A model generated the notes under the pieces. That model was given only the letters and a program-made list of their open reading frames with translations. It was not told where the DNA came from and did no database searches. Source: Bacteroidaceae bacterium (lineage in GTDB: Bacteria > Bacteroidota > Bacteroidia > Bacteroidales > Bacteroidaceae). Taken from it: a stretch of 64,000 nt of DNA. Both the position numbers and the translations under genes were made by a program. Of this stretch, positions 3,318 through 41,701 are shown in pieces (the first letter of the stretch is position 1; every line of letters begins with the position of its first letter). The stretch spans positions 153,306 to 217,305 of the forward strand of contig JAFRQD010000011.1 in the NCBI GenBank assembly GCA_017428785.1, given 5' to 3'.

Positions 3318-3361
3318 AATTAGACATGTCTAAGTCGCGAATTAGGCACGCCTACCCAGAG
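3318..3361. repeat. 22-bp-period array, two units, in the HU leader
   Basis: Two units begin AATTAG at 3318 and 3340. Each has an RCRYGY hexamer at offset 6: ACATGT at 3324 and GCACGC at 3346. The first unit forms the perfect palindrome TTAGACATGTCTAA (3320-3333), the second TAGGCACGCCTA. It lies between the promoter and the start codon, so it is probably transcribed. Confidence 0.65.
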
Positions 3362-3407
3362 AGAGAACAAACACAGTATAAACCCTAAACTTTAAACTTT
3401 TAATATC

Positions 3408-3869
3408 ATGATCAACTACAGTATCGCAATTCTAAGCACTAAGCCAGGAACAAAGAAAGAAAACATCCAGGAAACCAAAGCCTATGGGACTGCTCAAGTC
3501 CATGAGATTCTTGACCTCGACAAGTTCTGCCAACACATTGCTGAGCACAACAGCCCCTTCTCCAAGGGTGCCATCAAAGGTGTGCTGACAGATGCCGTGT
3601 CTTGTTTGAGAGAGCAGATGCTGGCAGGCAACAAGGTGAAACTCGGTGACATGGGAGATTTCTATCCCGAACTCCAGACAGAAGGTGCAGTCACCACCGA
3701 TGATTTTTCTGTTGAGAACATCAAGGAGGTCAACGTCTGCTGGCTGCCCTCAAAGAGCTTCAAGAATTTGAGGCAAGAAGCTGAATTCAAGCTTGTTCCC
3801 AGTCGCTCTGCACAGGGTGATGCCATCGAGGTCATCAGGAACACAGACACCATCCATGGACTGGAATAA
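3408..3869 (+). CDS. HU-family DNA-binding protein (HU-HIG type)
   Basis: 153 residues starting MINYSIAILSTKPGTKK, the form of the Bacteroidales HU-like proteins (HU-HIG, Pfam PF18291). Recognisable parts are the AHL-like N-terminal strand region, the helix SKGAIKGVLTDAVSCLREQMLAGNKV, the LGDMGDFYPEL segment that corresponds to the HU/IHF core, and a long C-terminal tail. It probably binds and bends DNA. In Bacteroidales these genes often sit beside an amidase, a small protein and a VirE/DUF3987-type gene; here a DUF3987-like gene and a DUF5675 gene lie just downstream on the other strand. It has its own promoter and a strong terminator. The specific role is unknown. Confidence 0.85.
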   Translation: MINYSIAILSTKPGTKKENIQETKAYGTAQVHEILDLDKFCQHIAEHNSPFSKGAIKGVLTDAVSCLREQMLAGNKVKLGDMGDFYPELQTEGAVTTDDFSVENIKEVNVCWLPSKSFKNLRQEAEFKLVPSRSAQGDAIEVIRNTDTIHGLE

Positions 3870-3892
3870 CCACCAATCCTTGGAATTAAGAG

Positions 3893-3933
3893 AGGTGTTA
3901 GCTTTATTAAAAAGGAGGCTAACACCTTTTTTT
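3893..3933 (+). terminator. Rho-independent terminator after the HU-HIG gene
   Basis: A perfect 10-bp stem AGGTGTTAGC (3893-3902) / GCTAACACCT (3918-3927) with a 15-nt loop is followed by a run of T (3928-3933). Confidence 0.92.
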
Positions 3934-4045
3934 GTAGCAAAAGCGTAAACTGTCATCTGTCATTTTGCAAAAAACAAGGGACAATCCACCTGAACAAGGA
4001 AGCAATTTATAATTCTAGATTTTGATTATTAACTTATCATATTCA

Positions 4046-4145
4046 ACCCCACCCCTACCCCTCCCCTTCAAGGAATGGGAGGGGAGTTGGGGTGCTGGAC
4101 TCTCCTCCCATTAAGGGGAGGAGTGGCTGAAAGCCGAGGTGGGGT
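4046..4145. repeat. Intergenic composite G/C palindrome
   Basis: 100-bp element with outer arms ACCCCACC (4046-4053) and GGTGGGGT (4138-4145) and inner complementary blocks CCCCTCCCCTTC / GGAGGGGAG and CTCCTCCC / GGGGAGGAG. It has the same design as the elements inside folC and the ABC-F gene. Confidence 0.8.
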
Positions 4146-4146
4146 A

Positions 4147-4262
4147 AAGACATTTCTCATTTTTAATTCTTCATTATTAATTCTTCATTTATAATTCTTA
4201 ATTCTTCATTCTTAATTTTTCATTTTTAATTCTTAATTCTTTCATAACTTTCAATTTTCAAT
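4147..4262. repeat. AATTCTTCATT / TTCAATTTTCAA low-complexity tract
   Basis: Tandem degenerate TTAATTCTTCATT units are followed by TTTCAATTTTCAATTTTCAA. The last repeats overlap the 3' end of the DUF5675 gene: read on the - strand they supply its last codons and its TGA stop. Confidence 0.8.
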
Positions 4263-4619
4263 TTTCAATTTCACCTCATGTCCCCTCCTGATGGCATGGT
4301 TGATTCGGTCATAGAGCCTGAGGAATGGTTCTTTGCTTTTCTTCAGGCAGCCTGGGATGATGGTGGTGCCAAGCAAAATCCGGCCATCTTGACAGTTATA
4401 TATACCATTCCCATAGGCAAGACAGACATCAGGGGCTTCCAGGAGGAAAGGCATCTTGCGACGGAAATGCTTGCTATACATTATATCTATATGATAAGTC
4501 CCTGGAGGGACTTGATGCAAGGAGTGCTCACAGGTGTCGCATACATATTCACCACAGATGGAGAGTCTGCCTGTGGCGGCAAACTCCCCTATGTGGCTTC
4601 TTTGCAAAAGTATTTTCAT
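4251..4619 (-). CDS. DUF5675 family protein
   Basis: 122 residues matching the small DUF5675 family found in phages and phage-derived loci: MKILLQRSHIGEFAATGRL, a CDTCEHS segment, VPPGTYHIDI, a region around APDVCLAYGNGIYNCQDGRILLG, and a C-terminal part. Its biochemical role is not established. The coding end KLKIEN* is written in TTGAAAATTGAAAATTGA repeats, so the natural C-terminus may have been replaced or extended by a repeat. It lies 39 bp downstream of the DUF3987-like gene on the same strand and is probably co-transcribed as the last gene of a four-gene cassette. Confidence 0.75.
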   Translation of the reverse strand: MKILLQRSHIGEFAATGRLSICGEYVCDTCEHSLHQVPPGTYHIDIMYSKHFRRKMPFLLEAPDVCLAYGNGIYNCQDGRILLGTTIIPGCLKKSKEPFLRLYDRINHAIRRGHEVKLKIEN

Positions 4620-4658
4620 GGTTTTAGAATGTAAAAAGGTAAAAATGACGATGACAAT

Positions 4659-5924
4659 TTACATTTCAAACATCTTGTGATAGAGTTTTGTGGACTCTTC
4701 GAACCAAATCCACTTCAATTTTCGCCACTTATATATATAGTGACGGGCATCTGTTTTGAGATTTTTCTCTACAATTTTATCCATGAGTTGCTCACGCGTG
4801 AAACTTTCAGGCATCACATCAAAGAGTGGAATTTGTTCCGCTGCCAATTTGGGTTTAGGCAAGGCAGCTTCATACTCCTGTCCCCACTGATCCAATTGAG
4901 AATCAAGAATTTGCTGGGCAAAGTAGAGGTAGCACCTGCTCACCTTTTCCTGGTGCTCAGGATTCTCGTCCCAAAGGAAGTAAAGCGTTGCACACAGTCC
5001 GAAGGCAGAAACTGATGCCCGGACATAGAAGGCCTCGAGAGCTCTGGAGCCAGACTTTGTGATGATGTAGCGTTGGTCATCAAGCCATTTTTCAATTGTA
5101 GGCAGCAGCCATTCCATATTTATTAGATGTGTAGGCTGGAGCTTGGCGTCATCTGTAAACGTCATTTTGTAAAGTTTTTGGATAGCATCATCCACTGCCT
5201 GCTGCTGTTCTGGGGTAAGAGGATGAAACACAGGAGCAGTTGGTGCCAGCTCATTGCCAACCTTGATGAGGATTTGTCTTGCACCATCGCCGCAAAGCAG
5301 ACCCTTCTTCGTGATGTAATCATTGAGGGCTGCTTCTTGCCCAAGTAAAATGCTGTTCCATACTATATCTACCATCGCATTGTAACCATCCACATAAAGT
5401 GTGTCTTTTACGAACATCTCTCCAAGTGAGAATGCAGTTCTGGCAACTGCCTGTAAATCAAGCTTTGACCTTCGTGTTTCAACCAAAGTACCTAATTCAT
5501 CAGCAGTTAGGAGAAAGCCCAGCTGTTCACCATATTTGCGTTGCTGCTGGTCAGAGTATTTGCACACAATGGGCAAGGTGAAGTGCTGGAGTAGCCGAAT
5601 GCATACCAAAGGCTCTTCTTCCTTTTCTGACTGAGAGCTTTTTCTCTTGTTGGCTTCCTGAGCCTGCTGCAATAGTCTGCGCTGCTTTTGGTCCTCTTCT
5701 CTTAGAGTTGTTGTAAGCATTTTTACAACATCCATGACTTGACTTTTTCCTGACCCTGTGTGGCCGATGACAAGGAGGTTGCAGAGCAGCATATTTTCCT
5801 TGTTGTCGTAGGGATATCTGACTCTGAGCCTTGGAGCCTGAGCTTGGTAGCAAATGATACTTGCAATAGTGGTAGCCATACGGAGAGCAGGTTCACCCTC
5901 CTGATTCTCATAAAAACACCTCAC
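4659..5924 (-). CDS. DUF3987-like P-loop ATPase, possibly with a 5' frameshift
   Basis: 421 residues counted from the GTG at 5922-5924. A Walker A motif GHTGSGKSQ is at about residues 54-62. The flanking region (ATTIASIICYQAQAPRLRV) and the later LLTADELGTLVETRR segment resemble the DUF3987 helicase/primase-like proteins of Bacteroidales mobile loci. The N-terminus is uncertain. The same frame is open upstream to a TGA at 5964-5966. A better start, ATG at 5975-5977 (- strand), is in the neighbouring frame and would join this one if the T4 tract at 5950-5953 had one more base, giving MKEFESRIKNHPEDLPL. This may be a genuine frameshift, a sequencing error, or a non-ATG start. It follows the 110-aa ORF and precedes DUF5675. 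Confidence 0.7.
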   Translation of the reverse strand: MRCFYENQEGEPALRMATTIASIICYQAQAPRLRVRYPYDNKENMLLCNLLVIGHTGSGKSQVMDVVKMLTTTLREEDQKQRRLLQQAQEANKRKSSQSEKEEEPLVCIRLLQHFTLPIVCKYSDQQQRKYGEQLGFLLTADELGTLVETRRSKLDLQAVARTAFSLGEMFVKDTLYVDGYNAMVDIVWNSILLGQEAALNDYITKKGLLCGDGARQILIKVGNELAPTAPVFHPLTPEQQQAVDDAIQKLYKMTFTDDAKLQPTHLINMEWLLPTIEKWLDDQRYIITKSGSRALEAFYVRASVSAFGLCATLYFLWDENPEHQEKVSRCYLYFAQQILDSQLDQWGQEYEAALPKPKLAAEQIPLFDVMPESFTREQLMDKIVEKNLKTDARHYIYKWRKLKWIWFEESTKLYHKMFEM

Positions 5925-5963
5925 CGCCAGAGGAAGATCCTCTGGGTGATTTTGATTCTTGAT

Positions 5964-6296: not shown

Positions 6297-6309
6297 AACT
6301 TAAATTTTT

Positions 6310-12773: not shown

Positions 12774-12840
12774 TTCGGCCTTACAGGCCAGAATTAACCG
12801 TTCAGCACTCCGTCAAAACACGCCCTGAGAGGGGGTTAAA

Positions 12841-12928
12841 AACGCCGCGTGCGGCGATGTCCAACGCCGCACGCGGGGATTGCCATCGCCGCAGCCGGGG
12901 ATTGCCATCGCCGCAGCCGGCGTTTTCA
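12841..12928. repeat. 22-bp-period array, four units (GC-rich type)
   Basis: Units begin at 12841, 12863, 12885 and 12907. Offset-6 hexamers are GCGTGC (12847), GCACGC (12869), then GCAGCC (12891 and 12913), so two are perfect RCRYGY and two differ. The array ends 5 bp from the stop codon of the orphan sorting tail at 12934. Confidence 0.85.
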
Positions 12929-13280: not shown

Positions 13281-16200
13281 TTACTTAACGGCAACTTTTT
13301 TACCATTTACGATGTAGATACCCTTTTGCATCTTGCCGATGCGCTGGCCGGCGAGGTTAACTATCGTTGAGCCTTGCTCGTAGAATCTGTCGTCCGTTGT
13401 CCGTTGTCCGTTGTCTATTGCTTTGATGCCTGTCATCGTGTCTGCAGTGAAGTAGCCAGGACTACCTGTGCCGCCATCAGGACGGGCGTATGTCTTATCT
13501 ACGAATGAATAATTATATAGTGTACCCTTTCCACCGACAAGTTTATCGCATCCCTGGAACATGGCGCCCGAATTAGCATTGCTTGTACTCCAGTCGCCAA
13601 AGCAACAAATGGTTGTCAACTCGGAACATGAATTAAACATAAACTTCATATTTGTTACATTGGTAATATCGAATGAGGTAAGGTCGATTATCTGGAGTGA
13701 ACTGCAGTCTTCGAACATACAGTACATACGCGTTACATTGGAGGTGTTGAAGCTACTTAGGTCAAGAGATTTAAGTTTCGAGCAGCCATAGAACATAAAA
13801 CTTATGTCCGTAACATTATCCATGTTGAGGTTCTCCAGTCCTTCGATGCTCGTCAGTTCGGTGCATCCGCTAAACATACCTTCCATCGAAGTCAAGGTAG
13901 CTTCCTTCATCGAGGGGTCGATATCGGCCTTGAGTACCTTGTTGCCGAATTTGGAAGAGACTCTATTAGCTGGATCATATAGTTTCGTCTCGCCGCTGCG
14001 CGAAGTCCGCTGATAGTCATAGTAGAATGTCATTGTACCTGTTTCTTCAGCTAACTCAGCATATACTTCCTTCTTCCGAACAGGACGAACGGTTTGACCG
14101 TAGCAGCGGTTGTAGCTGCCTATGAAAATATTGCCAGAATAAAAGTACAGGCCGCACGCGATGCCGGAGGAATTCGCATAGAGCGAACGCGACAAGTAGT
14201 GGCCGTAGCTGCCTGCGCCGTTGTGATTCGTATCGTTGAAGAAGCCGGCAGCGGCCAGAAAAATTGAGTTGCCGTTGCTCTTGCTCGTAATCTTCCATCC
14301 GTTAACGCCGTTCACCTGCGTCCACTCTGTCGTCGTGTACTCGCTATTGATTAACTCCTCTATTTGGCTGTAGCTCGGCATCTGCCATTCGCTGCCCCAA
14401 ATGACTGTCGCAGCATCATCTTCGGGAAGAACCTCAGTCATGCCGACATCGTACTTTTTGAACGTGTCGCCGCCATCTTCGGTGTCGAAGTAAGTGCCCC
14501 AGCTGTAGTCTTCCTTCGGTTGCGTCTCGCCCCAAGCGAAGTAATCGCCATAGTCTTCTGGGTTCTCAGCACCTACATTGCATGTCGCCCAAAGTGTGCC
14601 GCTGGGCAAGCCGAGGTCTACATAGTCATGCTCCTCGGGTTCAAATACTGTCAGTTGGCATTCGGCCTTCACGCCGCTACCGTCCGTTGCATAACAGGTG
14701 ATTGTGCAGGTACCGACAGATTTTGCTTGGACTTTCCCTCCATACACTGTTGCCACGTTGGTGTCGCTACTTTTCCACCTCAAATAACCGTTGTCGGCAT
14801 TGGCAGGTTCAAGGGTAGACGTAAGTGACCAGTATGTGTCGACTTCCATTCTAAGCAAGGTATTGCTCAAATCTATTGAAGAAACCAATATAGGTTCTGT
14901 GTAGCGGACGGGCCGTACGCTTAAACAGAATTTTGGTGTTGCAAGATAATGGGCAAATAGGCTCGATGTAAAGTATATTTCTGAAGCATATTGATAAGAA
15001 GGATTCAAAATGCGTGACCAATAGTTACCTTTTTCCCCTTCTCCGGACTTCCCGTATAAGCAATTACCAGCAGCAGGCAGGAAGATGCTATTGCCGTTAC
15101 TCTTACTTGTAATCAGTCTGCCATTCACCCCGTTCAGTTGTGTCCACTCAGACGTGGTATATTCTTCGCTGATTAGTTCTAATATCTGAGCCTCGCTTGG
15201 CATCTGCCAATCGCTACCCCAATTGACTGTTGCTGCATCGTCTTCTGGTTGGAGAGATGTCAATATACCTGTGCCACCGTCCACATTATATTTTGCCAGA
15301 ATGTAGTCACTGATTCTGTAGCTTTCAAAGTTGTCGAAATCTTCCTTCGGCGTTGTCTCGCCCCAAGCGAAGTAGTCGCCATACTCCTCGGGACTGTTGG
15401 CACCCACATTACATGTAGCCCACAAAGTGCCGCTGGGCAAGCCAAGGTCGACATATTCATGCTCTTGAGGTGTTTCTGCTTTGCCGAGGTAAGAGAGCTG
15501 GAAGTTGTCGAAGGCAACCCACTGGTGCGTTGCTGTTCCCTCGATGCCGACAGTCAGACCGCCATTGCCGTCATATACGAATGTAATGGGCTCAATAGTG
15601 TAGCGCCCCATATAGAACGATGCGCCGGCATCGGCCATACTGTTCTCCGAACCTGCAATGGCAGGCAGTTCTGCCGTTTCGCTGCCAATGAAGAACTTGG
15701 GAGCATCTTCTGTAACGCCATCTTCCTGGCGATAGAAGCCTTGTGCCGTCAACTGATACACGCCAGCAGGAGCATCTGCGATGGTCTGGCTGATGGTAAA
15801 TGTCGAGTGATATGACTCGGCGCAGTAGTTCTCAACTTTATCATATAATGGACCGCCCAACGTCTTGTCGGTGCAGTTGCCGCCAACTTCCCAAGCTTCA
15901 GTACGCATGTCGTTGCGGTTGAAGGTGGGGTTCTGCAGCAGGAAGGTGGCATCCACGGGATTGTTCTGCGTAGCTGACTCTAATGCTTTCATGCGCTCCT
16001 GCATCAACTCATCTTTCGGAACGATAATCCATTCGTGCGGAGTGTTGCTCATCACGAGGTTGTTGTTGCTATCGATGTTGATATACTGTCCCTCGCTATT
16101 AGCTATGTAGAAGCCTGAGCCTTGTTTATCGAAGAACCATCCGTACTCGTCGCTGTCCATGTAGAGGTTGCTGCCAAGATATTGTTGGTATCCGCCATTG

Positions 16201-17417
16201 GTGACGCGGCTGTTGATGGAAACGCTGCGATTCGTTGTGTTAGGAGTAAGAATAAGGTCAAGGCCTTGCTCGTTCACGATGCCGTGAGTGCCCCATTCAT
16301 TGCCGGCAGCTATCATCAGTCTGCTCTCTCCGTCGAGGATGTAGTATTCGCCAGCAGCAAAGTCGATGTAGTAGTTGGCTCTTCTGAAGTCAGCAATGGC
16401 ATCCTTTAGCTCGGCAACAACTGCCTCCAGCTCGGGGATATTAAAATTGCTGCTGAAATACATAGTTTCTTCTGCTCTTTTGAGATATGCGGTGAACACT
16501 TCCTTGCCGTTGGTCTTGTTCTCGTCGCGGAAAAGTATCAGTCCCTCGGCAACAAGAGATGAGAGTCGGGATTTTGCTGCAGCGTATGCTTGCTTCGCAG
16601 TCGTAATCCATTTGAGGCTCTTGATTTGAATAGTGTGCCATTCCGTCTGCCCTGCCTTTGCAAGGGCAAGACCGATGAGGAGCTTTTCGTCGAATACCTG
16701 CACGCCATTGATGGCATAGGTCTCGGGCTCGAAACTCGACATGCCGCTGTTGCGACGGGCTGTTATCCACGTCTGCTCGGTGACTCCCAAGGAAGAGCCG
16801 AAGACATAAGCCACATCGTTGGCATCTGCCTGAAGGCTGGGAGCAGGGTTGTCTGCGCTCACGGGCATGTATTGACCGTTCCAAGCGTTGTGGGAAGTGG
16901 CATAGAGCTCGATGTTGTAAGTGCCGTTCTCCACGCTGACCTCTTGCGAAAGCATGATGCCTACGCGAGTTTCGCCGAAGTGCTCAATCAAGGTGATACC
17001 ATTGTGGGAGTAGGTAGCTTTTTGGCTATTGTTCCCTGAGCCGACATTCCAGTCGGCCATTTTGGTGCCAACCCTTGCAGTTTCGTCTTTCACCAGGTCG
17101 GCATTGTCGGCCAGGAACTGGTCGATGGCAGCTTGCAACTGGCTCTCGTCGTTGTTGTCCTTGGCCCATTGGATGGCTTTGCGCAGCTTGCCTACAGCAA
17201 CGGCATCGTCGTCGGAAGCCAAAGCTTCTGCCTGTTCCATCAGGGAATTATACTCGTCCGTCGGCACATCGGCATCAGTCTCTCCGCTCGTTGTGCACCA
17301 TTCAAGAACTCTGAAAGTAGGAAGGGAAGACCATTCTACATACTGATATGCATAAGCAGGAGCATTAAGCAACATCAATGCACTCAACAGAAATGATTGA
17401 AATAATGTTTTATTCAT
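13281..17417 (-). CDS. Large secreted multi-domain protein: paralogous domain x2, BIG2, BspA-type LRR, sorting tail
   Basis: 1378 residues from the ATG at 17415-17417; a longer frame would start inside the -7 box and is rejected. A signal peptide (MNKTLFQSFLLSALMLLNAP) is followed by an N-terminal region of about 640 residues without a clear family. Two copies of a domain beginning EYVDLGLPSGTLWATCNVGA lie at about 654-835 and 930-1114; this resembles the Fibrobacter succinogenes major paralogous domain. A BIG2-type Ig domain (about 840-925) separates them. BspA-like DUF285 repeats (MFxGCxxLxxLDLSSFNTSNVTxM) fill about 1129-1310. The end, STIVNLAGQRIGKMQKGIYI, is a T9SS-like sorting tail. Just before the tail, GTTGTCC repeats (13389-13417) are read in frame as DNGQRTTDDR. 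Probably a cell-surface adhesin or substrate-binding protein; the role is inferred. Confidence 0.8.
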   Translation of the reverse strand: MNKTLFQSFLLSALMLLNAPAYAYQYVEWSSLPTFRVLEWCTTSGETDADVPTDEYNSLMEQAEALASDDDAVAVGKLRKAIQWAKDNNDESQLQAAIDQFLADNADLVKDETARVGTKMADWNVGSGNNSQKATYSHNGITLIEHFGETRVGIMLSQEVSVENGTYNIELYATSHNAWNGQYMPVSADNPAPSLQADANDVAYVFGSSLGVTEQTWITARRNSGMSSFEPETYAINGVQVFDEKLLIGLALAKAGQTEWHTIQIKSLKWITTAKQAYAAAKSRLSSLVAEGLILFRDENKTNGKEVFTAYLKRAEETMYFSSNFNIPELEAVVAELKDAIADFRRANYYIDFAAGEYYILDGESRLMIAAGNEWGTHGIVNEQGLDLILTPNTTNRSVSINSRVTNGGYQQYLGSNLYMDSDEYGWFFDKQGSGFYIANSEGQYINIDSNNNLVMSNTPHEWIIVPKDELMQERMKALESATQNNPVDATFLLQNPTFNRNDMRTEAWEVGGNCTDKTLGGPLYDKVENYCAESYHSTFTISQTIADAPAGVYQLTAQGFYRQEDGVTEDAPKFFIGSETAELPAIAGSENSMADAGASFYMGRYTIEPITFVYDGNGGLTVGIEGTATHQWVAFDNFQLSYLGKAETPQEHEYVDLGLPSGTLWATCNVGANSPEEYGDYFAWGETTPKEDFDNFESYRISDYILAKYNVDGGTGILTSLQPEDDAATVNWGSDWQMPSEAQILELISEEYTTSEWTQLNGVNGRLITSKSNGNSIFLPAAGNCLYGKSGEGEKGNYWSRILNPSYQYASEIYFTSSLFAHYLATPKFCLSVRPVRYTEPILVSSIDLSNTLLRMEVDTYWSLTSTLEPANADNGYLRWKSSDTNVATVYGGKVQAKSVGTCTITCYATDGSGVKAECQLTVFEPEEHDYVDLGLPSGTLWATCNVGAENPEDYGDYFAWGETQPKEDYSWGTYFDTEDGGDTFKKYDVGMTEVLPEDDAATVIWGSEWQMPSYSQIEELINSEYTTTEWTQVNGVNGWKITSKSNGNSIFLAAAGFFNDTNHNGAGSYGHYLSRSLYANSSGIACGLYFYSGNIFIGSYNRCYGQTVRPVRKKEVYAELAEETGTMTFYYDYQRTSRSGETKLYDPANRVSSKFGNKVLKADIDPSMKEATLTSMEGMFSGCTELTSIEGLENLNMDNVTDISFMFYGCSKLKSLDLSSFNTSNVTRMYCMFEDCSSLQIIDLTSFDITNVTNMKFMFNSCSELTTICCFGDWSTSNANSGAMFQGCDKLVGGKGTLYNYSFVDKTYARPDGGTGSPGYFTADTMTGIKAIDNGQRTTDDRFYEQGSTIVNLAGQRIGKMQKGIYIVNGKKVAVK

Positions 17418-17450
17418 GTATAAAAGCTTTAAAATAATCAATAGTTGATG

Positions 17451-17481
17451 CAAATATAATTAAATAATGAATACAGACAAA
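17451..17481 (-). promoter_or_regulatory. Promoter of the 1378-aa surface protein gene
   Basis: On the - strand TTTG (complement of 17478-17481), 19 nt, TATATTTG (complement of 17451-17458). The predicted start near 17445 leaves a 28-nt leader and fixes the start codon at 17417. Confidence 0.8.
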
Positions 17482-17545
17482 GACTGACAAGCAGAAAAAA
17501 CAATAAAAGCATGAAATTCGGCGATTTAGCTCTCATTGCAAAAGA

Positions 17546-17640
17546 AGACACGTGATGTTAGCAAACATCACACGTGAATTTTACGATTTTCACATGTGAA
17601 TTTTGCAATTTTCACACGTGGATTTTGCCAACGACACGAG
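17546..17640. repeat. 22-bp-period array, five hexamers (CACGTG type)
   Basis: Hexamers ACACGT 17548, ACACGT 17570, ACATGT 17592, ACACGT 17614 and ACACGA 17636 are exactly 22 bp apart; four are perfect RCRYGY. The array ends 12 bp from the stop codon of the GH127 gene and lies upstream of the surface-protein promoter. Confidence 0.9.
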
Positions 17641-17652
17641 TATCTTTTTTAA

Positions 17653-20634
17653 TCAAAAGGCAATCTTCTTCCCGTTGACAATGCTGATGCCCGGTTGAGG
17701 CACATGCAATTGCTGTCCGAGGAGGTTATAAATGCTTTTATTTATATTAGGGTTAACATCCATGTTATTTACCCCTGTTCCATCATTCAGCGACAGCATA
17801 TAGGCGTAGAAGATGCCGCCGGTCAAGGTTCCTGTCGGAGAGGTGAGGTGGATGCGGACGCTTTCCTTGCCGCTTGTTCCTTCCTCGGGGATGGGATAGC
17901 AACGCATCATGAAACGCCCTGGTTCGTTGTGGAGGAGACTTTCGGAAGCTACAAACACATCGTCGCACATGATGTCGAAGTTGCGTGCATCGCCCTCGTC
18001 GCCCCAATATAATATCATCAGATAATTGCGATGTGTCTTGTTGACCTTCATCATCCAGCTCTGCCCTGTTGTGCCCGAGCCGTCGAGCCAAGTGCGGTTG
18101 CGGAAAGAGCCGCTGCCGCCATTGCTCGAATAGCGATGACTCGTGCGTGAAGCAGTCTTCGTCGTCCACATATAATCGACCGTCGCAGAGCCCTCGGGCA
18201 CACCTTCCGAGAGAGCCGTATAGACGCCAAACAGGCCGCCGACAATATTGTCAGCATTGGTGGATTGCATCTTTATCGTCACCTTATCTTTGTCCTTCGT
18301 GAGGTCAAAGGGAATAGGATGCCGCATGAAGTAATACTCGTTGGGAGAGAAGTTGTCAACATGTTCATAAGAGAAGACCGTTCCGTCGCAATAGATGTCG
18401 AAACGGCGGTTGCCTCCATCGCTGCCCCACAGCTTCAAGACAAGGTCGGTGGGGCGAAGAGGGTCAACCTTCATCTCGTAGCTGATCCATCCGTTCGGAG
18501 CATCGCGCCAACCAAGGTCGCTTCCCGTACGCATGTTGCTGCCCTGCAGGTGATGAGATTGTTCGCTTGCGCTGTTGCATATCTTTACCTCATCAAGGAA
18601 ATCCATAGGCTGCTGCATCTTGCTGGCATCCGTAGGAATCCATACCAACATGGACGAAGCAGCACGATGGGCACGGGCAAAGTATGGAATCAAACGAATC
18701 ACCTTATCAGATACAACAAGGTCGGCCTCGCTCTGGTTACCGCTTTGTGAACAGGACTTGCCGTTCATGCGAAGCTGTAGCATTCCGCCCTTGAAAAGAG
18801 ACGTCAGTGTAGAAGGTGCATTGCCAGCAACACCCGTTGCTCCTTCAGGAATAAAGAGATTGTCGAGCTTGCCACCATTGTCAACGCCCTCAGCACAATA
18901 GACAATAGGCCCGCGCTCGTAGGAACAGAGACCTTTGTTGGTCTTCAAATTCTCGTTAGAGACAACCTGATGCACATCCATCGGAAGCGATATACTTACT
19001 TCGTCGCCAGCCTTCCAGTCATTGTGCAAAAGAGCATATCCGTCCTGTACTGTATAGCTGACCTCTTCGCCGTTCAGCTTGATGACAACAGGCGTCGTTG
19101 TCGGGTTCACATAGGAATAGAGGTCGCTCTGGGCGGGCTTGTTTACAGCCCAACCAGGGATGCGAACCTTCAACGTCTTGCTCCCTGCACCTTGCCCCTC
19201 AACACTATTGAATGTCAGCTTCATGTCGCCCCTGAAAGGATAAGAGCCGGTAACGGTAATACCAAATGCGGCATCGCCAACAGTTGCCGTTGCCGTACTT
19301 GCCACAAAGAGGTTCCAATAGAGGGCATCATCGTCGGTGGCATAGATGTAGCCAGGAACAGAAGGGATGAGTCGGCAGAGGTTTGTGGGGCAGCAACTTG
19401 TGCCGAACCATTCCGGACGAGGATCTCCCCTTTCGCTCGTAGCCAAGCGGTTGGGATAATAGAATGTCTTGCCCGCAATGCCATAGCCGTCCAATACAGT
19501 ATTATATAATGCACGTTCGAGCATATCAATGTACTTGCCCTCACCATGCAAGCGGAACATGCGGAGGTTGAACATGCTGCCTGCCACCGAAGCACAGGTC
19601 TCACAATAGGCCGATGCATTCGGAAGCTCATAATCCTCGCCGAAAGCCTCGTTGTTGTCGCGAGCACCGAAGCCTCCGGTGATATAGAACTTCTTGCTTG
19701 CAATGTTGTCCCAAATGGCCTTTACTGCCGTCTCGTAAGCCTCATCGCCTGAGTAACGCACCCAATCCGCCATACCACTATAGAAGTACATTGCACGAAC
19801 TGCATGGCCTTCGGCAGAGCGTTGCTCAACAGCAGGCAAATGGTCTTGCCAATACTTACCGTTCACGCGCTGGTCACCGCTTGATGGGTCGAACTTGCGG
19901 ATGCCTCGACAATCGAGAAAGAACTTGCAGCCCTGCAGGTATCGCTCGTCTCGCGTCAACTCGTAGAGGCGAACAAGAGCCATCTCGACAACCGCATGAC
20001 CAGGAGCCATCTTGATGCCGTCCTCGTTGAAGACGCTCAGCATATTGTCCGCAGCCTTCTTGGCACAGTTCAACAGCTTGTCCTTGCTCGTAGCCTGATA
20101 GTAGGCAATTGCAGCCTCGACGAGTTCCGCCACATTGAATGTCTCGTGGGAAAGGTTCCAGTCGCTCGTCCACTTCTCACCGTTGTACCAAGGATGCAGA
20201 GGGTTGTGGATGGTGAAGTTTGTCTGAATGTAGCCGTCAGGCTCCTGAGCAGAACAGATAAGGTCAATAACCCCATCGCAATACTCTTCGAGGCTGGCAT
20301 TGGCCTGAGTCGTCAGCACATACGAAGCGCCCTCCAACACCTTATATACTTCCGCATCGTCATACGGATTGCCTGACTGGAAAGTAAGGTCGCCCACTTT
20401 CGCTTCGCCACTCACAATCTTGCCAGCATACTCAAAGTTGCGGAGCTGACCGGCATCCGTACACTTCTGGAAAGCATAGCGAATCGTCGTGTTTCGCATC
20501 ACATCAAGGCGTTGTTTCCAAAACAAGTCCTTCACTTGCACATCAGTAAAAGGCACTTGCTTAATCTCACCGGCTGCCGCAACATTAAGGCTATAGACGA
20601 GCACACAGACGAAAGTAACAAGAATCTTTTTCAT
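17653..20634 (-). CDS. GH127 beta-L-arabinofuranosidase with tandem C-terminal modules and sorting tail
   Basis: 993 residues from MKKILVTFVCVLVYSLNVAAA (signal peptide; start at 20632-20634; a longer frame into lpxH is rejected). The catalytic domain follows the GH127 (DUF1680) pattern: FTDVQVKDLFWKQRLDVMR, GYIQTNF, GHAVRAMYFYSGMADW, YCETCASV with E345 and C347, and TSCCPTN with C414 and C415. These match the Glu-Cys-Cys-Cys zinc/nucleophile set known from HypBA1. Two related modules follow at about 720-830 and 850-960 (each with WLD/GWR, KLWGSDGG or LYWGDEGD, FDIYCD or FDIMCD), resembling DUF6805. The C-terminus (IYNLLGQQLHVPQPGISIV) is a T9SS-like tail. It likely removes arabinofuranose from plant glycans outside the inner membrane. 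It is 25 bp downstream of lpxH, an unrelated neighbour. Confidence 0.88.
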   Translation of the reverse strand: MKKILVTFVCVLVYSLNVAAAGEIKQVPFTDVQVKDLFWKQRLDVMRNTTIRYAFQKCTDAGQLRNFEYAGKIVSGEAKVGDLTFQSGNPYDDAEVYKVLEGASYVLTTQANASLEEYCDGVIDLICSAQEPDGYIQTNFTIHNPLHPWYNGEKWTSDWNLSHETFNVAELVEAAIAYYQATSKDKLLNCAKKAADNMLSVFNEDGIKMAPGHAVVEMALVRLYELTRDERYLQGCKFFLDCRGIRKFDPSSGDQRVNGKYWQDHLPAVEQRSAEGHAVRAMYFYSGMADWVRYSGDEAYETAVKAIWDNIASKKFYITGGFGARDNNEAFGEDYELPNASAYCETCASVAGSMFNLRMFRLHGEGKYIDMLERALYNTVLDGYGIAGKTFYYPNRLATSERGDPRPEWFGTSCCPTNLCRLIPSVPGYIYATDDDALYWNLFVASTATATVGDAAFGITVTGSYPFRGDMKLTFNSVEGQGAGSKTLKVRIPGWAVNKPAQSDLYSYVNPTTTPVVIKLNGEEVSYTVQDGYALLHNDWKAGDEVSISLPMDVHQVVSNENLKTNKGLCSYERGPIVYCAEGVDNGGKLDNLFIPEGATGVAGNAPSTLTSLFKGGMLQLRMNGKSCSQSGNQSEADLVVSDKVIRLIPYFARAHRAASSMLVWIPTDASKMQQPMDFLDEVKICNSASEQSHHLQGSNMRTGSDLGWRDAPNGWISYEMKVDPLRPTDLVLKLWGSDGGNRRFDIYCDGTVFSYEHVDNFSPNEYYFMRHPIPFDLTKDKDKVTIKMQSTNADNIVGGLFGVYTALSEGVPEGSATVDYMWTTKTASRTSHRYSSNGGSGSFRNRTWLDGSGTTGQSWMMKVNKTHRNYLMILYWGDEGDARNFDIMCDDVFVASESLLHNEPGRFMMRCYPIPEEGTSGKESVRIHLTSPTGTLTGGIFYAYMLSLNDGTGVNNMDVNPNINKSIYNLLGQQLHVPQPGISIVNGKKIAF

Positions 20635-20659
20635 ATTCTTTCTTACCTTATATATATAA

Positions 20660-21418
20660 TTACAAAGGCGCTTCACCTTCAGTATAACTCTCAAGGTAAA
20701 GTCCTTCTCCATCATAAACGGCATAGGTGAACTGCGTAATCCAGTCGCCAAGAATAATGAGACGAGTCTGATGACTGAGAGCAAGGTCGAGTTCAATGTG
20801 ACGATGCCCGAAGATGAAGAAATCAACCTCTGGATGCTCCTTCAGATATTGCTTTGCAAAGAGAACCAACGGCTCCTTGTCCTCTCCCTGATAAGGCGCC
20901 TCTGCGTTATGCTTCATGCGGCTGTGCTTTGCCCAATTGAGGCCAAAACGCATACCCAAGGCAGGATGCAGCCAACGGAATGCCCATTGGCAGAACTTAT
21001 TGTGGAAGATGTTTCTAAGGAAACGAAACTTCCAATCACTATCGCCAAGACCATCGCCATGAGCAAGATAGAACGTCTGGTCGCCTATCTCAACAGTCAG
21101 TGCGCTTCGATGCAGAATAACACCACATTCCCTCTCCAGATAGTTGAGACACCAGATATCGTGATTACCGGTAAAGTAATGCACCTCAATGCCCATATCG
21201 GTCAGTTCGCTAACCTTACCGAGGAAGCGAGTAAAGCCTTTGGGTACAACACTCTGATATTCGAACCAGAAGTCGAACATATCGCCAAGCATATAGATGG
21301 CGCCTGCCTTCCCTTTAATCTCATCGAGGAAGCGCACCAAGCGTCTCTCCTGTTGGCGACGATGCTTGATTGCAAGGCTCCCCAAATGGGCATCGCATAT
21401 AAAATAAATGTTCTTCAT
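20660..21418 (-). CDS. lpxH: UDP-2,3-diacylglucosamine diphosphatase
   Basis: 252 residues of the calcineurin-like metallophosphoesterase fold. Metal-binding motifs are in order: DAHLG (residues 9-13), GDMFDFW (about 44-50), GNHD (about 85-88), HGDGLGDSD and FGHRH. LpxH removes UMP from UDP-2,3-diacylglucosamine to give lipid X in lipid A synthesis at the inner membrane. The N-terminal DAHLG and the size fit Bacteroidales LpxH-like proteins. Paralogous phosphoesterases exist, so the substrate is inferred from family. The gene lies 37 bp downstream of the MIP18 gene, separated by a GTGAAAAG-type repeat. Confidence 0.82.
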   Translation of the reverse strand: MKNIYFICDAHLGSLAIKHRRQQERRLVRFLDEIKGKAGAIYMLGDMFDFWFEYQSVVPKGFTRFLGKVSELTDMGIEVHYFTGNHDIWCLNYLERECGVILHRSALTVEIGDQTFYLAHGDGLGDSDWKFRFLRNIFHNKFCQWAFRWLHPALGMRFGLNWAKHSRMKHNAEAPYQGEDKEPLVLFAKQYLKEHPEVDFFIFGHRHIELDLALSHQTRLIILGDWITQFTYAVYDGEGLYLESYTEGEAPL

Positions 21419-24333: not shown

Positions 24334-24340
24334 TTATTTA

Positions 24341-24455
24341 ATTGAAGATTGAAAATTGAAAATTGAATATAAAGAAGTCCTCTGATTGAAGATTGAAAAT
24401 TGAAAATTGAATATAAAGAAGTCCTCTAATTGAAGATTGAAGATTCAGAATTAAG
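24341..24455. repeat. 44-bp tandem repeat between hisS and the methylase gene
   Basis: Two near-identical 44-bp units (24341-24384 and 24385-24428), each made of ATTGAAGATTGAAAATTGAA and a tail ATATAAAGAAGTCCTCT, are followed by a partial third. The final part touches the hisS stop codon (24451-24453). Confidence 0.88.
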
Positions 24456-25949: not shown

Positions 25950-26174
25950 CGAAGAATAATTGAAAAATAAGAAAAAGAGCCAAGTTTTTTGCAAAAAAAC
26001 ATGTTTCTTGTGTGTCTGGATGAAACAACAAATCGATTTGGCAAAAGAAAAATCAATAATGCGGACACATGAGAAAAGCGACGAAACGAAAGCCGAAATC
26101 GCGAAAAAATCTTTACATAATTTGGGGACAATTCTTGAGATTATGGGACACACAGCACAATGAAAGATGAAACG

Positions 26175-26262
26175 TAACATGTGAAGTTTGCAAACATCAC
26201 ACGTGAAGTTTGTAAACACGACACGTGAAGTTCACCGATTCCACACGTGGAATTTGGTCCAA
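26175..26262. repeat. 22-bp-period array, four units (CACGTG type)
   Basis: Hexamers ACATGT 26177, ACACGT 26199, ACACGT 26221 and ACACGT 26243 are exactly 22 bp apart and all match RCRYGY. Weaker in-phase alternating hexamers (GCACAA 26155, ATGTGC 26265) suggest decayed outer units. It lies in the divergent gap between hisS and the zinc-hook gene. Confidence 0.88.
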
Positions 26263-29290: not shown

Positions 29291-29349
29291 ATAGTCTTAA
29301 TAAAGTATAAACTCTAAACACTAAACTCTCAACTCTCAACTATTTTTCG

Positions 29350-31540: not shown

Positions 31541-31559
31541 TTACATGAGGCTTACTCAT

Positions 31560-31647
31560 GGCACACGAGATGTCGGCGAAATCCACACGAGGATTTGATG
31601 AAATCCACACGTGAACTTTGGGAAATCCACACGTGGATTTTGCAAAG
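31560..31647. repeat. 22-bp-period array, four units (CACGAG/CACGTG type)
   Basis: Hexamers ACACGA 31563, ACACGA 31585, ACACGT 31607 and ACACGT 31629 are exactly 22 bp apart. Each unit also shares AAATCC just before the hexamer from the second unit on. It sits 21 bp downstream of the DPP IV-like gene. Confidence 0.88.
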
Positions 31648-35377: not shown

Positions 35378-35391
35378 AAGCGTGAGGCTCA

Positions 35392-35523
35392 AACCAAGCG
35401 TGCCCTGCTACAGAACTATGCACGTTTAGTTGTAAAACTAAGCACGCTTAATTGCCAAACTAAGCACGTTTAATTTACAAATATGGCGTGTTACGATTGC
35501 TATCATAACACGCCATGTTTGCG
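35392..35523. repeat. 22-bp-period array, six units (GCACGY type)
   Basis: Six perfect RCRYGY hexamers at exact 22-bp steps: GCGTGC 35398, GCACGT 35420, GCACGC 35442, GCACGT 35464, GCGTGT 35486 and ACACGC 35508. The third and fourth units begin AACTAAGCACG. Units five and six are mutually inverted and form an 11-bp stem ATGGCGTGTTA (35483-35493) / TAACACGCCAT (35506-35516), which may also stop transcription between the convergent genes. Confidence 0.92.
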
Positions 35524-35658: not shown

Positions 35659-36513
35659 TTATTTCAGGAAGCCTTCAGCTGTGAAGTACTTGCTCTTGCT
35701 GAGGGGCTCGATGCTACCGAACTTTTGCCATTCTGCGTCTGCTTTGAACTTAGCAAGGAAGGCATCGGGAACATAGAGTGTGCAACCCTTGTTGGGTGTG
35801 CAGTTCTTTGGCATTGGATAGAATTCGGTGCTGAGAAGGTAAATCTTCTTCCACTTCGCAGCAGAGGGAATCATGCCGAACATGCGGTTCTTGAAGTCGT
35901 TAGGAACGGAGAACTCCTCGATGCCGGTGCAGCCTTCGAATGCTCCATCCTCAAGTTTGCTCATCGTAATCGCCATAAGGATGCTCTTCAGCTTGGCGCA
36001 GCCGCCAAACGCTCCGTCGCGAATCCAGTAGATATGCTCGCCGAAGCGTGCCGACTCGAGTGATGTGCAACCTGCAAAGGAGTTGAGTCCTATCGTATAA
36101 ACATCGACATTAAGGCTCTTCAAGGCAGAACAGCCATTGAACGCCTCATCGTTGATGACAGGCATTTCGCCCTGGAAATGGACCTTTTCGAGAGAGGTGC
36201 AACCAGCAAAAGCATAGTTTGCGATGTGCTTGATCTGCGGTGCAATCCACACTTCCTTGATGCTCTTGTTGTCCTTGAACTCCTCTGTGTTGATACTCTG
36301 AATCGTTGAACCGAAGCCCATCTTCTCTTCTGTGGGCACATACTTGTCGGCACGATGCTTACTTGTATAGAAGAAGATGTCCTTTGCAGGTGTTTCAGTC
36401 GCATCCGACTCCACTTTAACTTTGTTTTCCTGCTTTGTTTGTTGTTTCTCACAGCTGGCAAAACCAATCAGACAAAATGCTGCAAAAACATAGAGAAAGA
36501 TGTTCTTTTTCAT
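35659..36513 (-). CDS. BspA-type leucine-rich-repeat lipoprotein
   Basis: 284 residues. A lipoprotein signal with lipobox GFASC (MKKNIFLYVFAAFCLIGFASC) is followed by an Asp/Lys-rich linker and about five LRR_5 repeats (IANYAFAGCTSLEKV, INDEAFNGCSALKSL, IGLNSFAGCTSLES, IRDGAFGGCAKLKSI, LEDGAFEGCTGIEEF), then a tail with CTLYVPDAFLAKFKADAEWQ. Such repeats form surface LRR solenoids used in adhesion or host binding in BspA proteins; the ligand here is unknown. It has a consensus promoter in a divergent pair with the YhhN gene. Confidence 0.85.
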   Translation of the reverse strand: MKKNIFLYVFAAFCLIGFASCEKQQTKQENKVKVESDATETPAKDIFFYTSKHRADKYVPTEEKMGFGSTIQSINTEEFKDNKSIKEVWIAPQIKHIANYAFAGCTSLEKVHFQGEMPVINDEAFNGCSALKSLNVDVYTIGLNSFAGCTSLESARFGEHIYWIRDGAFGGCAKLKSILMAITMSKLEDGAFEGCTGIEEFSVPNDFKNRMFGMIPSAAKWKKIYLLSTEFYPMPKNCTPNKGCTLYVPDAFLAKFKADAEWQKFGSIEPLSKSKYFTAEGFLK

Positions 36514-39182: not shown

Positions 39183-39216
39183 TTCATAAAATACAATTTC
39201 TAATTTATAGTTAAAT

Positions 39217-41262
39217 ATGAAAACAAGAAACATGATTACAGCCTTTGCTTTTATAGCAATGACTGCTGCTTGCACACCTGGTGGCAAGCAACTGGCGTCT
39301 GGCATCGACCTCGCCAATCTCGACTCAACCTATCTGCCTGGAACAGACTTCTACATGTTTGCCACAGGCGGTTGGCAGAAACTGCATCCCTTGACAGCCG
39401 AGTACAGCCGCTTCGGTTCCTTTGACCAACTGGGCGAGGACAACAACAAGCGTCTGCGCTCTATCATCGAGGAAGTCTCTGCGAAGGAGAACGAAAAGGG
39501 TTCCATCGAGCAGAAGATTGCCGACCTCTACAACTCGGCAATGGACAGCGTGAAGCTGAACGGCGAATACTCTTGGTACGACCTCGAAGGCTTCCTGCTT
39601 TGCGACGGCTATCAGAACACCCGTGAAATCACGAACAATTGGCTCAAAGATGTTTGGCCACGCATGCAGCGACAAGGCGTCCCCGGACTCTTCAGTATGT
39701 ATATCGGGGCAGATGAGAAGGACTCAAAGAACAACCTGGTAAGCATCTTCCAAGGCGGCCTCACGCTGGGCCAGAAGGACTATTATGTGGATAATGACCC
39801 GAGGACGCAAGAGATTCGAACGGCTTATCAGAAGTACATCGTTGACCTCTGTAAGCATACGGGCTTTGGCGAGGACGACGCAAAACGCATCAGCGAGGAT
39901 GTCCTCCGCATCGAGACGCGCATTGCCTTTGCAAGCAAGAGCCGTACAGAACTGCGCGACCCCGAGGCCAACTACAACAAGATTTCCTACGCAGAGCTGA
40001 AAGAGCAGTTCCCTGGCATCGATTGGGACGGCTTCTTCAGCAACTTCGGAATGGAAGGCGTGAAGGAGGTTTGCCTCGGTCAGCCCGTTGCCATTCACGA
40101 GGTGGAGAAGGTGCTGAAGGAAGAGACTCCGGAAGCATTGCAGAACATCTATCTTTGGCACGCAATCGATATGGTTTCGTCCTTTATAGATGACGAGAGC
40201 CGAGCCCTGAACTTCGGCTTCTATGGCAAAGTGATGAGCGGCAAGGAAGAGGATCGTCCGCGCTGGAAGCGTGCAGTTGCTGCCGTTGAAGGCGGTCTTG
40301 GCGAAGCCCTCGGCCAGCTCTATGTAGCCAAGTATTTCCCGCCCGAAGCAAAGGCTCGCATGGAGAAGCTCATCAAGAACCTCCAGATTGCTCTTGGCGA
40401 GCGCATCGATGTGCAGGAATGGATGAGCGACGAGACGAAGAAGGTGGCTCGCGAGAAGCTCGACGCCTTCTATGTGAAGGTGGGCTATCCCGACAAATGG
40501 AAGGACTACAGCGACCTCGAGATTGGCGACAGCTACCTCTGCAACATGCTTGCCGTGGGAGAATGGGAAATCAAGGACATGATTAAGACCAAGTTCAACA
40601 AGCCCGTGGATCGCGACGAGTGGTATATGACGCCGCAGACCGTCAACGCCTACTACAACCCCACTACCAACGAGATTTGCTTCCCCGCAGGCATCTTGCA
40701 ACCACCCTTCTTCGATATGCAGGCCGACGACGCCTTCAACTACGGAGCCATCGGTGTCGTGATTGGACATGAGATGACACACGGCTTCGACGACCAGGGC
40801 AGCAAGTACGACAAGAACGGCAACCTCGTGACTTGGTGGAGCGAAGAAGACACAAAGCAATTCGAAGAGCGCATCCAGGTGATGCGTGAGTTCCACGACA
40901 GCATCGAGGTGCTGCCCGGACTGCATGCCAACGGCTCTCTCACGCTTGGTGAGAACATGGCCGACCACGGCGGTCTGATGGTTGCCTTCCAAGCTTTCAA
41001 GAACGCCACGAAGGACGCGCCTCTGGAAACCATCGACGGCTTCACGCCCGAACAGCGCTTCTTCCTTGCCTACGCCAACGTATGGGGACAGAACATCCGC
41101 GACGAGGAGATTCAGAAGCGCGTGAAGAGCGACCCGCATCAGTTGGGCATGTGGCGTGTGAACGGACAGATGCCGCACATCGATGCATGGTACGACGCCT
41201 TCGGCATCACGGAGTCCGACCCGATGTTTGTCCCGAAGGAAAAACGCGTCACAATCTGGTAA
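39217..41262 (+). CDS. M13 family metalloendopeptidase, putative lipoprotein
   Basis: 681 residues. A signal with a possible lipobox (FIAMTAACTPG, Cys19) suggests a lipid-anchored periplasmic protein. It has the neprilysin/PepO architecture: a long N-terminal M13_N domain (from DFYMFATGGWQKLHP) and a C-terminal catalytic domain with HEMTH (H518, E519, H522), the third ligand E579 in GENMADHGG, and NAYYNPTTNEICFPAGILQPP before it. It likely degrades oligopeptides. It starts 34 bp after the ABC-F gene without its own promoter and is followed by a strong terminator. Confidence 0.94.
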   Translation: MKTRNMITAFAFIAMTAACTPGGKQLASGIDLANLDSTYLPGTDFYMFATGGWQKLHPLTAEYSRFGSFDQLGEDNNKRLRSIIEEVSAKENEKGSIEQKIADLYNSAMDSVKLNGEYSWYDLEGFLLCDGYQNTREITNNWLKDVWPRMQRQGVPGLFSMYIGADEKDSKNNLVSIFQGGLTLGQKDYYVDNDPRTQEIRTAYQKYIVDLCKHTGFGEDDAKRISEDVLRIETRIAFASKSRTELRDPEANYNKISYAELKEQFPGIDWDGFFSNFGMEGVKEVCLGQPVAIHEVEKVLKEETPEALQNIYLWHAIDMVSSFIDDESRALNFGFYGKVMSGKEEDRPRWKRAVAAVEGGLGEALGQLYVAKYFPPEAKARMEKLIKNLQIALGERIDVQEWMSDETKKVAREKLDAFYVKVGYPDKWKDYSDLEIGDSYLCNMLAVGEWEIKDMIKTKFNKPVDRDEWYMTPQTVNAYYNPTTNEICFPAGILQPPFFDMQADDAFNYGAIGVVIGHEMTHGFDDQGSKYDKNGNLVTWWSEEDTKQFEERIQVMREFHDSIEVLPGLHANGSLTLGENMADHGGLMVAFQAFKNATKDAPLETIDGFTPEQRFFLAYANVWGQNIRDEEIQKRVKSDPHQLGMWRVNGQMPHIDAWYDAFGITESDPMFVPKEKRVTIW

Positions 41263-41319
41263 AAGCCCCGCACAGAATCCCTTTGTATGACACCCGCAAT
41301 GAGGGTGTGACTAATGAAG

Positions 41320-41356
41320 TGAACCCCAGAAGTATTTGCCTGACTTCTGGGGTTCA
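41320..41356 (+). terminator. Terminator after the M13 peptidase gene
   Basis: A perfect 14-bp stem TGAACCCCAGAAGT (41320-41333) / ACTTCTGGGGTTCA (41343-41356), 9-nt loop, then TTTCT. A smaller CACCC/GGGTG hairpin (41291-41307) precedes it. Confidence 0.9.
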
Positions 41357-41542
41357 TTTCTAATTATTGCTGCCCGACATATCCAGACTGGAAGGCCGGA
41401 CAGCAATGTTTTGTAAACATTTTTCCAAGAGAGATGCGTTATAAGAGCTTATTTTTTGTTTTGTGGCACTTTTCTATCTAAAACGCAGAAAATGGGCTTA
41501 AATCAAATCGGCACTGGTTATCAAATGGTTACAAAGCTAAAT

Positions 41543-41573
41543 TTTGAGACACTAAGCAAAGAAAGTATCTTTG
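41543..41573 (+). promoter_or_regulatory. Orphan consensus promoter upstream of a 22-bp-period array
   Basis: TTTG (41543-41546), 19 nt, TATCTTTG (41566-41573), facing right. No + strand gene follows before the convergent S41 gene; the predicted transcript (start near 41580) would contain the array at 41614-41701. A candidate for a non-coding RNA. Confidence 0.6.
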
Positions 41574-41613
41574 CCACACACCAAGCGGTCAAACAGCGCA
41601 GGGTTTGAGCCGA

Positions 41614-41701
41614 AATTCCGCCTGCGGAGATGGGCAACTTCACACGCGGAAATTACAAACATCGCGTGCGGCGTTGGCTATCTTCGCGTGCGGCGTTGGA
41701 A
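41614..41701. repeat. 22-bp-period array, four units (GCGTGC type)
   Basis: Hexamers GCCTGC 41620 (one mismatch), ACACGC 41642, GCGTGC 41664 and GCGTGC 41686 are exactly 22 bp apart; the last two units share CGCGTGCGGCGTTGG. The rest of the gap to 41896 has only small palindromes (TTGGCTGAAGCCAA). Confidence 0.88.

What the first reader, a model, noticed from the sequence alone, without database searches (positions are those of the whole stretch)
3318..41701. A family of intergenic mini-arrays with an exact 22-bp period and an in-phase RCRYGY hexamer
Seven arrays (3318-3361, 12841-12928, 17546-17640, 26175-26262, 31560-31647, 35392-35523, 41614-41701) have 2-6 units of exactly 22 bp. In nearly every unit an alternating purine-pyrimidine hexamer (ACACGT, GCACGC, GCGTGC, ACATGT, GCGTGT) sits at the same offset after an AA-like start. 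The remaining bases differ from array to array but are alike within an array, as if each is homogenised locally. All are intergenic, at 3' ends, in leaders or between divergent promoters. 22 bp is two helical turns, so the hexamers face one side of DNA: this could be an operator or nucleoid-protein array, an iteron-like element, or a mobile minisatellite. Porphyromonas gingivalis is known to carry intergenic tandem repeats of about 22-23 nt (BrickBuilt elements); whether these are related is open.
Basis: seen in the sequence. Interest (0 to 1): 0.88.

Follow-up and report, generated by a model that had tools for sequence, protein, structure and literature searches.

The report
Intergenic arrays of exact 22-bp palindromes
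A rumen bacterium carries many short intergenic DNA arrays built from palindromes repeated every exactly 22 bases, often just behind genes; they resemble known bacterial extragenic palindromes, but the strict spacing, which relatives keep while the letters change, looks new.

Summary
In 1.247 Mb of the host genome (42%), a unit profile finds 146 arrays at period 22 and none at periods 18-21 or 23-26. The unit is a 22-bp dyad, CMAACTYC-RCRYGY-GGAGTTKG: AA, CRYG and TT nearly fixed, 5-bp arms variable. Of 143 arrays with gene context, 2 lie in genes; of the other 141, 44% lie within 60 bp of a stop codon, against 14% for random intergenic placement.

Class G: 88 bp, mostly four units, outward T-tracts, at gene 3' ends. 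Class A: variable arrays, also at 3' ends. Class C: inside a ~290-bp dispersed element, not at 3' ends. A three-unit family, T, was missed.

Relatives have 22-bp arrays with other letters, even at the same site behind nhaA. Two orthologous pairs differ by whole units.

Best reading: REP/BIME-like extragenic palindromes, new in their strict 22-bp head-to-tail phase. Class G probably acts as a bidirectional terminator (inferred). What reads the 22-bp framework is unknown. BrickBuilt and RAYT-linked REP membership were tested and not met; sense-strand RNA hairpins are not established for class A.

The parts
12839..12926 (.). Class G array, 4 units, A-run at the left edge and T-run at the right edge, between convergent genes
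17540..17649 (.). Class A array, 5 units, 3 bp behind the end of the - strand gene 17653-20715
26169..26256 (-). Class C array, 4 units, in an inverted copy of the ~290-bp element (end motif at 26103-26119, - strand), divergent promoter region
31555..31642 (.). Class A array, 4 units (3 pass the profile, 31577-31642), 26 bp behind the - strand peptidase gene ending at 31669; an ortholog in L044 has one unit more
35390..35521 (.). Class A array, 6 units (5 pass the profile), 12 bp behind nhaA
41410..41765 (+). Class C dispersed element with direct-repeat-like ends (TTTGTAAANATTTTTCC) holding the array 41612-41699 (4 units)
47119..47184 (-).
54564..54626 (+).
3318..3361 (.). Two-unit candidate of the same form; too short to establish by itself
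   Evidence: not recovered by the profile

Best explanation
The arrays are several families of dispersed extragenic palindromic repeats, analogous to REP/BIME elements and sharing one architecture: head-to-tail 22-bp dyad units (AA-N5-CRYG-N5-TT) whose phase is kept while the arms drift and stay alike locally. The commonest forms mark gene 3' ends. Class G (four units, A-run at the left edge, T-run at the right) most likely works as a bidirectional transcription terminator or 3'-end module, each outer unit giving a GC hairpin followed by a T-tract. Class A probably does this more weakly or stabilises transcript ends. Shown: period, dyad, location, outward T-tracts, whole-unit length changes, other letters at the same period in relatives. 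Inferred: termination itself, copying as the route of spread, and the reason for 22.
For: Location: 44% of 141 arrays within 60 bp of a stop against 14% in random placement; 27% convergent against 14%; tandem arrays nearer the upstream gene's end in 59 of 77 against 49%. T-runs of 4 or more at outer edges: class G 91 of 130, A 28 of 112, C 3 of 40; at internal junctions 5 of 430 and 20 of 514 for the G and A labels of that stage. Hairpin plus T-tract (-8 kcal/mol or lower) at 43 of 73 gene ends with an array against 100 of 296 without, p 1.5e-4. Class G has exactly 4 units in 54 of 65.
Against: No strand preference: hairpin plus T-tract is as frequent on strands facing a gene end as not (G 58% of 84 and 57% of 54; A 30% of 69 and 27% of 75; class C not yet separated). 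T-runs at facing against non-facing ends: G 59 of 84 and 33 of 54 (p 0.27), A 19 of 69 and 11 of 75 (p 0.067). Masking the array removes the terminator signal (9 of 73), but a matched mask on other genes does the same (39 of 296), so arrays are not shown to replace other terminators. Class C is not at 3' ends (0 of 20). Wobble pairs in near-3' arrays show no sense preference (27 against 27).
Confidence: 0.45

Rival explanations
1. Operator-like arrays: a dimeric DNA-binding, nucleoid-type protein reads the AA-CRYG-TT framework, one dimer per 22-bp dyad, all on one face of the DNA; the 3'-end position would serve supercoiling or insulation, as proposed for BIMEs.
For: Near-fixed framework with variable arms and a dyad-symmetric profile; no unit-specific arm compensation; exact period; framework kept better than arms in one ortholog pair, 37 of 40 against 38 of 50.
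Against: No protein identified. Relatives have 22-bp arrays without this framework. Outward T-tracts of class G are not expected from a pure protein site.
Confidence: 0.3
2. Small mobile elements (MITE-like): classes G and C spread by transposition, and the 22-bp units are incidental to mobility.
For: Class C: about 40 copies found with 40 of 232 candidates scored, full-length ones 68-76% identical to the query, with direct-repeat-like ends. Class G four-unit copies are 83% identical on average, up to 99% (some class C arrays included). In G008 the 335-base stretch holding the 31.5-kb array is cut to 8 bases.
Against: The only Y1 transposase gene found in the genome is flanked by a different inverted repeat and has no array within its 3.3-kb locus. 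No target duplication seen by eye. Class A has no shared flanks in BLAST. Other transposases were not searched for.
Confidence: 0.13
3. Neutral minisatellites: an old set of 22-bp arrays that keeps its period by descent while letters drift and units are gained and lost.
For: Whole-unit length differences, 66 bp and 22 bp, at two orthologous sites; similarity falls with distance within arrays; same period with other letters behind nhaA in three species.
Against: Dyad excess at lag 22 in own, named-relative and congener sets (7.12, 6.52, 6.38 against 5.73, 5.55, 5.55 shuffled), though lag 23 in congeners (n = 5) is also high, 6.60 against 5.53. Fixed unit number in class G and strong 3'-end bias.
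Confidence: 0.1

Closest known systems
REP / BIME elements (repetitive extragenic palindromes)
   Same: High-copy extragenic palindromes, clustered, proposed roles in termination, mRNA stability and supercoiling (passages of PMC3733652 and PMC2817692)
   Different: No GTAG/CGTC tag enrichment, no link to the genome's Y1 gene, strict head-to-tail 22-bp period, variable arms on a fixed framework
BrickBuilt of Porphyromonas gingivalis
   Same: Intergenic tandem units of about 22-23 nt in a Bacteroidales genome
   Different: Other consensus, no match in the window, terminal repeat at chance, many families instead of one element
Bidirectional intrinsic terminators
   Same: Class G: GC hairpins with outward T-runs at gene 3' ends
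   Different: Four phased units instead of one hairpin; termination not measured
Iterons and operator arrays
   Same: Several phased sites side by side
   Different: Many dispersed arrays of dyad units, many behind genes

Membership tests
REP | Extragenic palindrome in high copy number | tested here: met
   146 arrays in 1.247 Mb; 2 of 143 in genes; dyad excess
REP | Unpaired GTAG or CGTC tag at one end | tested here: not met
   GTAG 1.53 per kb in arrays against 3.28 intergenic, CGTC 2.44 against 4.09; at an outer edge of 4 and 6 of 143 arrays
REP | Cognate RAYT gene flanked by the repeat | tested here: not met
   One Y1_Tnp match in the genome; its flanks are a 46-nt inverted repeat of other sequence; no R1 match in its 3.3-kb locus. 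The assembly is 84% complete, so another copy could be missing.
BIME | Regularly spaced REPs in alternating orientations | tested here: inconclusive
   Units are regular, but being dyads their orientation is hard to define
BrickBuilt | 23-nt unit AGAYCATARTATCCTCTCRTRTG | tested here: not met
   0 matches in the window with up to 3 mismatches
BrickBuilt | Terminal inverted repeat CCGAAAGGTCTC | tested here: not met
   7 matches with up to 2 mismatches against 5.1 by chance, none at an array
Intrinsic terminator | Hairpin followed by a T-tract behind genes | tested here: met
   Sequence form only, mainly class G: 43 of 73 against 100 of 296 gene ends; T-runs at 91 of 130 class G edges
Intrinsic terminator | Stops transcription | not testable with these tools
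   No transcript data
Conserved RNA hairpin (sense strand) | Compensatory pairing and sense-strand wobble preference | tested here: inconclusive
   Same-unit arm match 2.52 of 5 exceeds all 2000 within-array shuffles (mean 2.28), but adjacent-unit arms match as well. Near-3' arrays 27 against 27; tandem arrays lean to sense, 17 against 9 and 39 against 27
Iterons | Array beside a replication initiator gene | not tested
   No search for a rep gene; mean spacing of 8.2 kb between arrays argues against it

The most novel reading that the evidence does not exclude
A bacterial satellite-like system in which phase and dyad symmetry, not sequence, are selected: a rumen genus keeps 22-bp head-to-tail palindromes at gene ends while the letters turn over between and within species. 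This implies a reader that senses geometry (a phased protein, or an RNA helix with 11 bp per turn), or a host factor whose specificity coevolves with its arrays.
Probability: 0.3. Interest if true: 0.85.

Novelty: new variant of a known kind. Interest (0 to 1): 0.62.

Why it matters
REP-type repeats are defined by a tag and, often, a transposase. Here a Bacteroidales genus has abundant extragenic palindromic arrays with neither feature found, sharing an exact phase that outlives the sequence. If the phase is selected, the arrays are a natural series for asking what reads them. If class G stops transcription in both directions, many 3' ends in an uncultured rumen group can be annotated at once. 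The orthologous sites that differ by whole units also show tandem-DNA turnover in bacteria.

Tried and rejected
RNA hairpin per unit: same-unit arms match better than a within-array shuffle (2.52 against 2.28 of 5, 0 of 2000), but adjacent-unit arms pair equally (0.602 against 0.588-0.621), so the effect is locality. RNAalifold on 31 class C copies gives little structure: one small helix on + and a few on -. RAYT-driven REPs: the one Y1 gene found has other flanks. BrickBuilt. Whole-array rod as the selected form: mirror excess is small (0.033) and nearly the same one step off centre (0.031 and 0.023). 'Arrays replace terminators': the matched-mask control removes this claim. Bimodal presence in the genus (10 of 37 genomes including own with 39-95 matches, 2 with 2, 25 with 0; 0 of 24 in other families) is at least partly a limit of the model and its strict filters, since R1-negative congeners carry other 22-bp palindromes and R1 finds copies, many weak, in 14 of 20 named loci. 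Literature searches: searches returned nothing; nothing relevant by title; BrickBuilt papers; REP papers. Only open-licence PMC papers are searched, so this does not show that the arrays are unpublished.

Limits: genes were called by my own codon-usage script. The 59-array set was taken from 66 lag-22 places, 7 dropped by eye as heptamer or unpatterned. R1 was built from 32 of 47 listed four-unit blocks. Labels G and A are rule-based; class C was split off only, so G and A figures include class C arrays. Searches scored only part of the first-look candidates (150 of 1401; 72 per genome; 40 of 232), so their counts are lower bounds. Profile arrays are selected for the framework; the AA/TT result was not. 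'About 350 per genome' is scaled from 42% of it. Dyad controls at lags other than 22 rest on few arrays (1-12 per set).
Full report
Setting. The window is G000:C2:153306-217305 of a 2.98-Mb, 71-contig assembly, 84% complete. Records with close nhaA genes are Bacteroidales MAGs, mostly from ruminants, labelled Bacteroidaceae, Prevotellaceae or Bacteroidales. No Rfam match or tRNA was found in the window.

Observation. The seven sites are as described. RCRYGY pairs at distance 22 number 17 in the window; other distances give 0-3 except 44 and 66. In 451 kb there are 88 against 0-9 at other lags from 8 to 43. With a profile of the unit, 1.247 Mb gives 146 arrays at period 22 and none at 18-21 or 23-26, nor in one mononucleotide shuffle. 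The arrays at 47119 and 54564 were missed; their core is TCATGA.

Anatomy. 255 units chosen by the hexamer alone give CMAACTYC-RCRYGY-GGAGTTKG. A at -6 is 0.89, A at -5 0.77, T at +10 0.72 and T at +11 0.88; these were not selected for. The unit is a dyad; the linker (commonly TTTGCAAA-like) is a second axis 11 bp away. The 5-bp arms vary between arrays, are alike between neighbours and lose likeness with distance.

Families. BLAST of arrays with 300-bp flanks showed that some lie in a longer repeat. Class C is ~290 bp; about 40 copies were found with 40 of 232 candidates scored, full-length ones 68-76% identical to the query, and 31 copies cut to the same margins are 420-423 long, so length changes are small. 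Of 143 arrays, 20 are C, 65 G and 58 A. G: exactly four units in 54 of 65, within 60 bp of a stop in 37 of 65, T-runs of 4 or more at 91 of 130 edges. A: 3-8 units, within 60 bp of a stop in 25 of 56, T-runs at 28 of 112 edges. C: 0 of 20 and 3 of 40. Class T has three units TTG...CATG...CAA; six copies in 451 kb form one BLAST group, and L037 and L044 hold triplets of the same shape with other arms.

Location. Of 143 arrays with context, 2 lie in genes. Of the other 141, 77 are tandem, 38 convergent and 26 divergent, against 60%, 14% and 26% for random placement in gaps of 100 bp or more. 44% lie within 60 bp of a stop against 14%; 8% within 60 bp of a start against 17%. In tandem context 59 of 77 are nearer the upstream gene's end, against 49%.

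Termination test. 43 of 73 gene ends with an array show a hairpin plus T-tract of -8 kcal/mol or lower, against 100 of 296 without (p 1.5e-4); the T-tract sits mostly at the array's 3' edge. Masking the array leaves 9 of 73, but the same mask on other genes leaves 39 of 296, so replacement of other terminators is not shown. Arrays score alike on strands that face a gene end and strands that do not (G 58% and 57%, A 30% and 27%, class C not separated), which suits bidirectional action but gives no orientation evidence.

RNA or DNA. Whole arrays tend to fold as rods: mean z -2.9 sense and -2.3 antisense for 22 arrays near a 3' end (sense more stable in 15), -2.1 and -2.2 for 37 others (13 of 37). 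Wobble: near-3' arrays 27 against 27; tandem arrays lean to sense, 17 against 9 with GU 179 and AC 146, p 0.076, and 39 against 27 in the larger set; single arrays tend to be one-sided, p 0.028. Class A mirror partners pair slightly above others (excess 0.038, CI 0.009-0.068), with nearly the same excess one step off centre. RNA structure is therefore not established for A, and a DNA-binding reading stays open.

Relatives. At least one lag-22 place occurs in 17 of 20 named loci, not all convincing by eye. In 561 kb of five R1-negative congeners, lag 22 has 20 places and lag 44 has 13, against 2, 5, 8 and 4 at lags 20, 23, 24 and 43; lag 21, a multiple of 3 and 7, has 23. Units there differ, for example ATAAGACGYGCGTCTTAT or TGGTTC-N10-GAACCA. 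Two other congeners sampled at 40 kb each gave none at lag 22 (G004, G030). Dyad scores at lag 22 exceed shuffles in the own, named-relative and congener sets; lags 21 and 23 in congeners (n = 12 and 5) are also raised, which counts against full specificity. In 311 kb of other families lag 22 has 2 places, no more than background.

Fixed sites. Behind nhaA the window has AACTAAGCACGTTTAATTGCAA-like units, L044 TTTGTTTCTCGTGAGGAAACAG-like units and L045 GAAGCGCAAGGCGCTTATTTCG-like units: same place and period, unrelated letters. Most other named loci have no such array there: the next gene follows at once or the gap differs. L048 and L049 differ by 66 bp and window and L044 by 22 bp within the array. 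In L033/L039 the framework matches at 37 of 40 positions, linkers at 18 of 20, arms at 38 of 50. In G008 the 335-base stretch holding the 31.5-kb array is cut to 8 bases, in G005 a 332-base stretch to 75.

Known kinds. REP and BIME elements are described as 20-40-bp extragenic palindromes with a GTAG or CGTC tag (PMC3733652, passages; it lists CGTC repeats in Bacteroidetes) and linked to RAYT genes (PMC2817692, passages). Tag and RAYT link were tested and not met. BrickBuilt (PMC4596501, passages) was tested and not met. I therefore do not file the arrays as REPs, though they are built and placed like them.

Verdict. A real, abundant set of 22-bp-phased extragenic palindromes in several families, most likely 3'-end modules, with class G a probable bidirectional terminator. 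Why the period is exactly 22 is open; that 22 bp is two turns of A-form RNA or of underwound DNA is recalled and was not tested.

Noticed in passing
window 415-523, 4151-4241, 24339-24452, 29308-29341: Many 7-bp tandem repeats (ATTGAAA, ATTCTTA, TAAACTC and others), also 8-bp ones, in intergenic DNA; lags 14 and 21 are raised in this genome and in relatives.
   Followed up: no
window 54710-54849: A perfect 75-bp tandem duplication (1.9 copies) just upstream of the gene at 54854.
   Followed up: no
L088:1302-1957: The only Y1 (IS200/RAYT-like) transposase gene found in the genome, flanked by a 46-nt inverted repeat of REP-like sequence unrelated to the 22-bp arrays.
   Followed up: partly
window 41410-41765 and 26103-26119: Class C element ends: TTTGTAAANATTTTTCC occurs at both ends in the same orientation (3 matches in the window against 0.03 expected).
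   Followed up: partly
window 13281-17453: Large protein with a DUF285 domain and a bacterial Ig-like domain; 35659-36513 has a PARCEL-repeat match below the curated cut-off.
   Followed up: no
L046 behind nhaA (after 11386): A single perfect 22-bp palindrome TTGCACATACATGTATGTGCAA, close to the units of the L044 triplet at 15054-15159.
   Followed up: no
L117:11589-11691 (G047, another family): A 22-bp array with units such as CGTTCTTGCAAGAACCAAGCAA, hinting that the architecture may reach beyond the genus.
   Followed up: no
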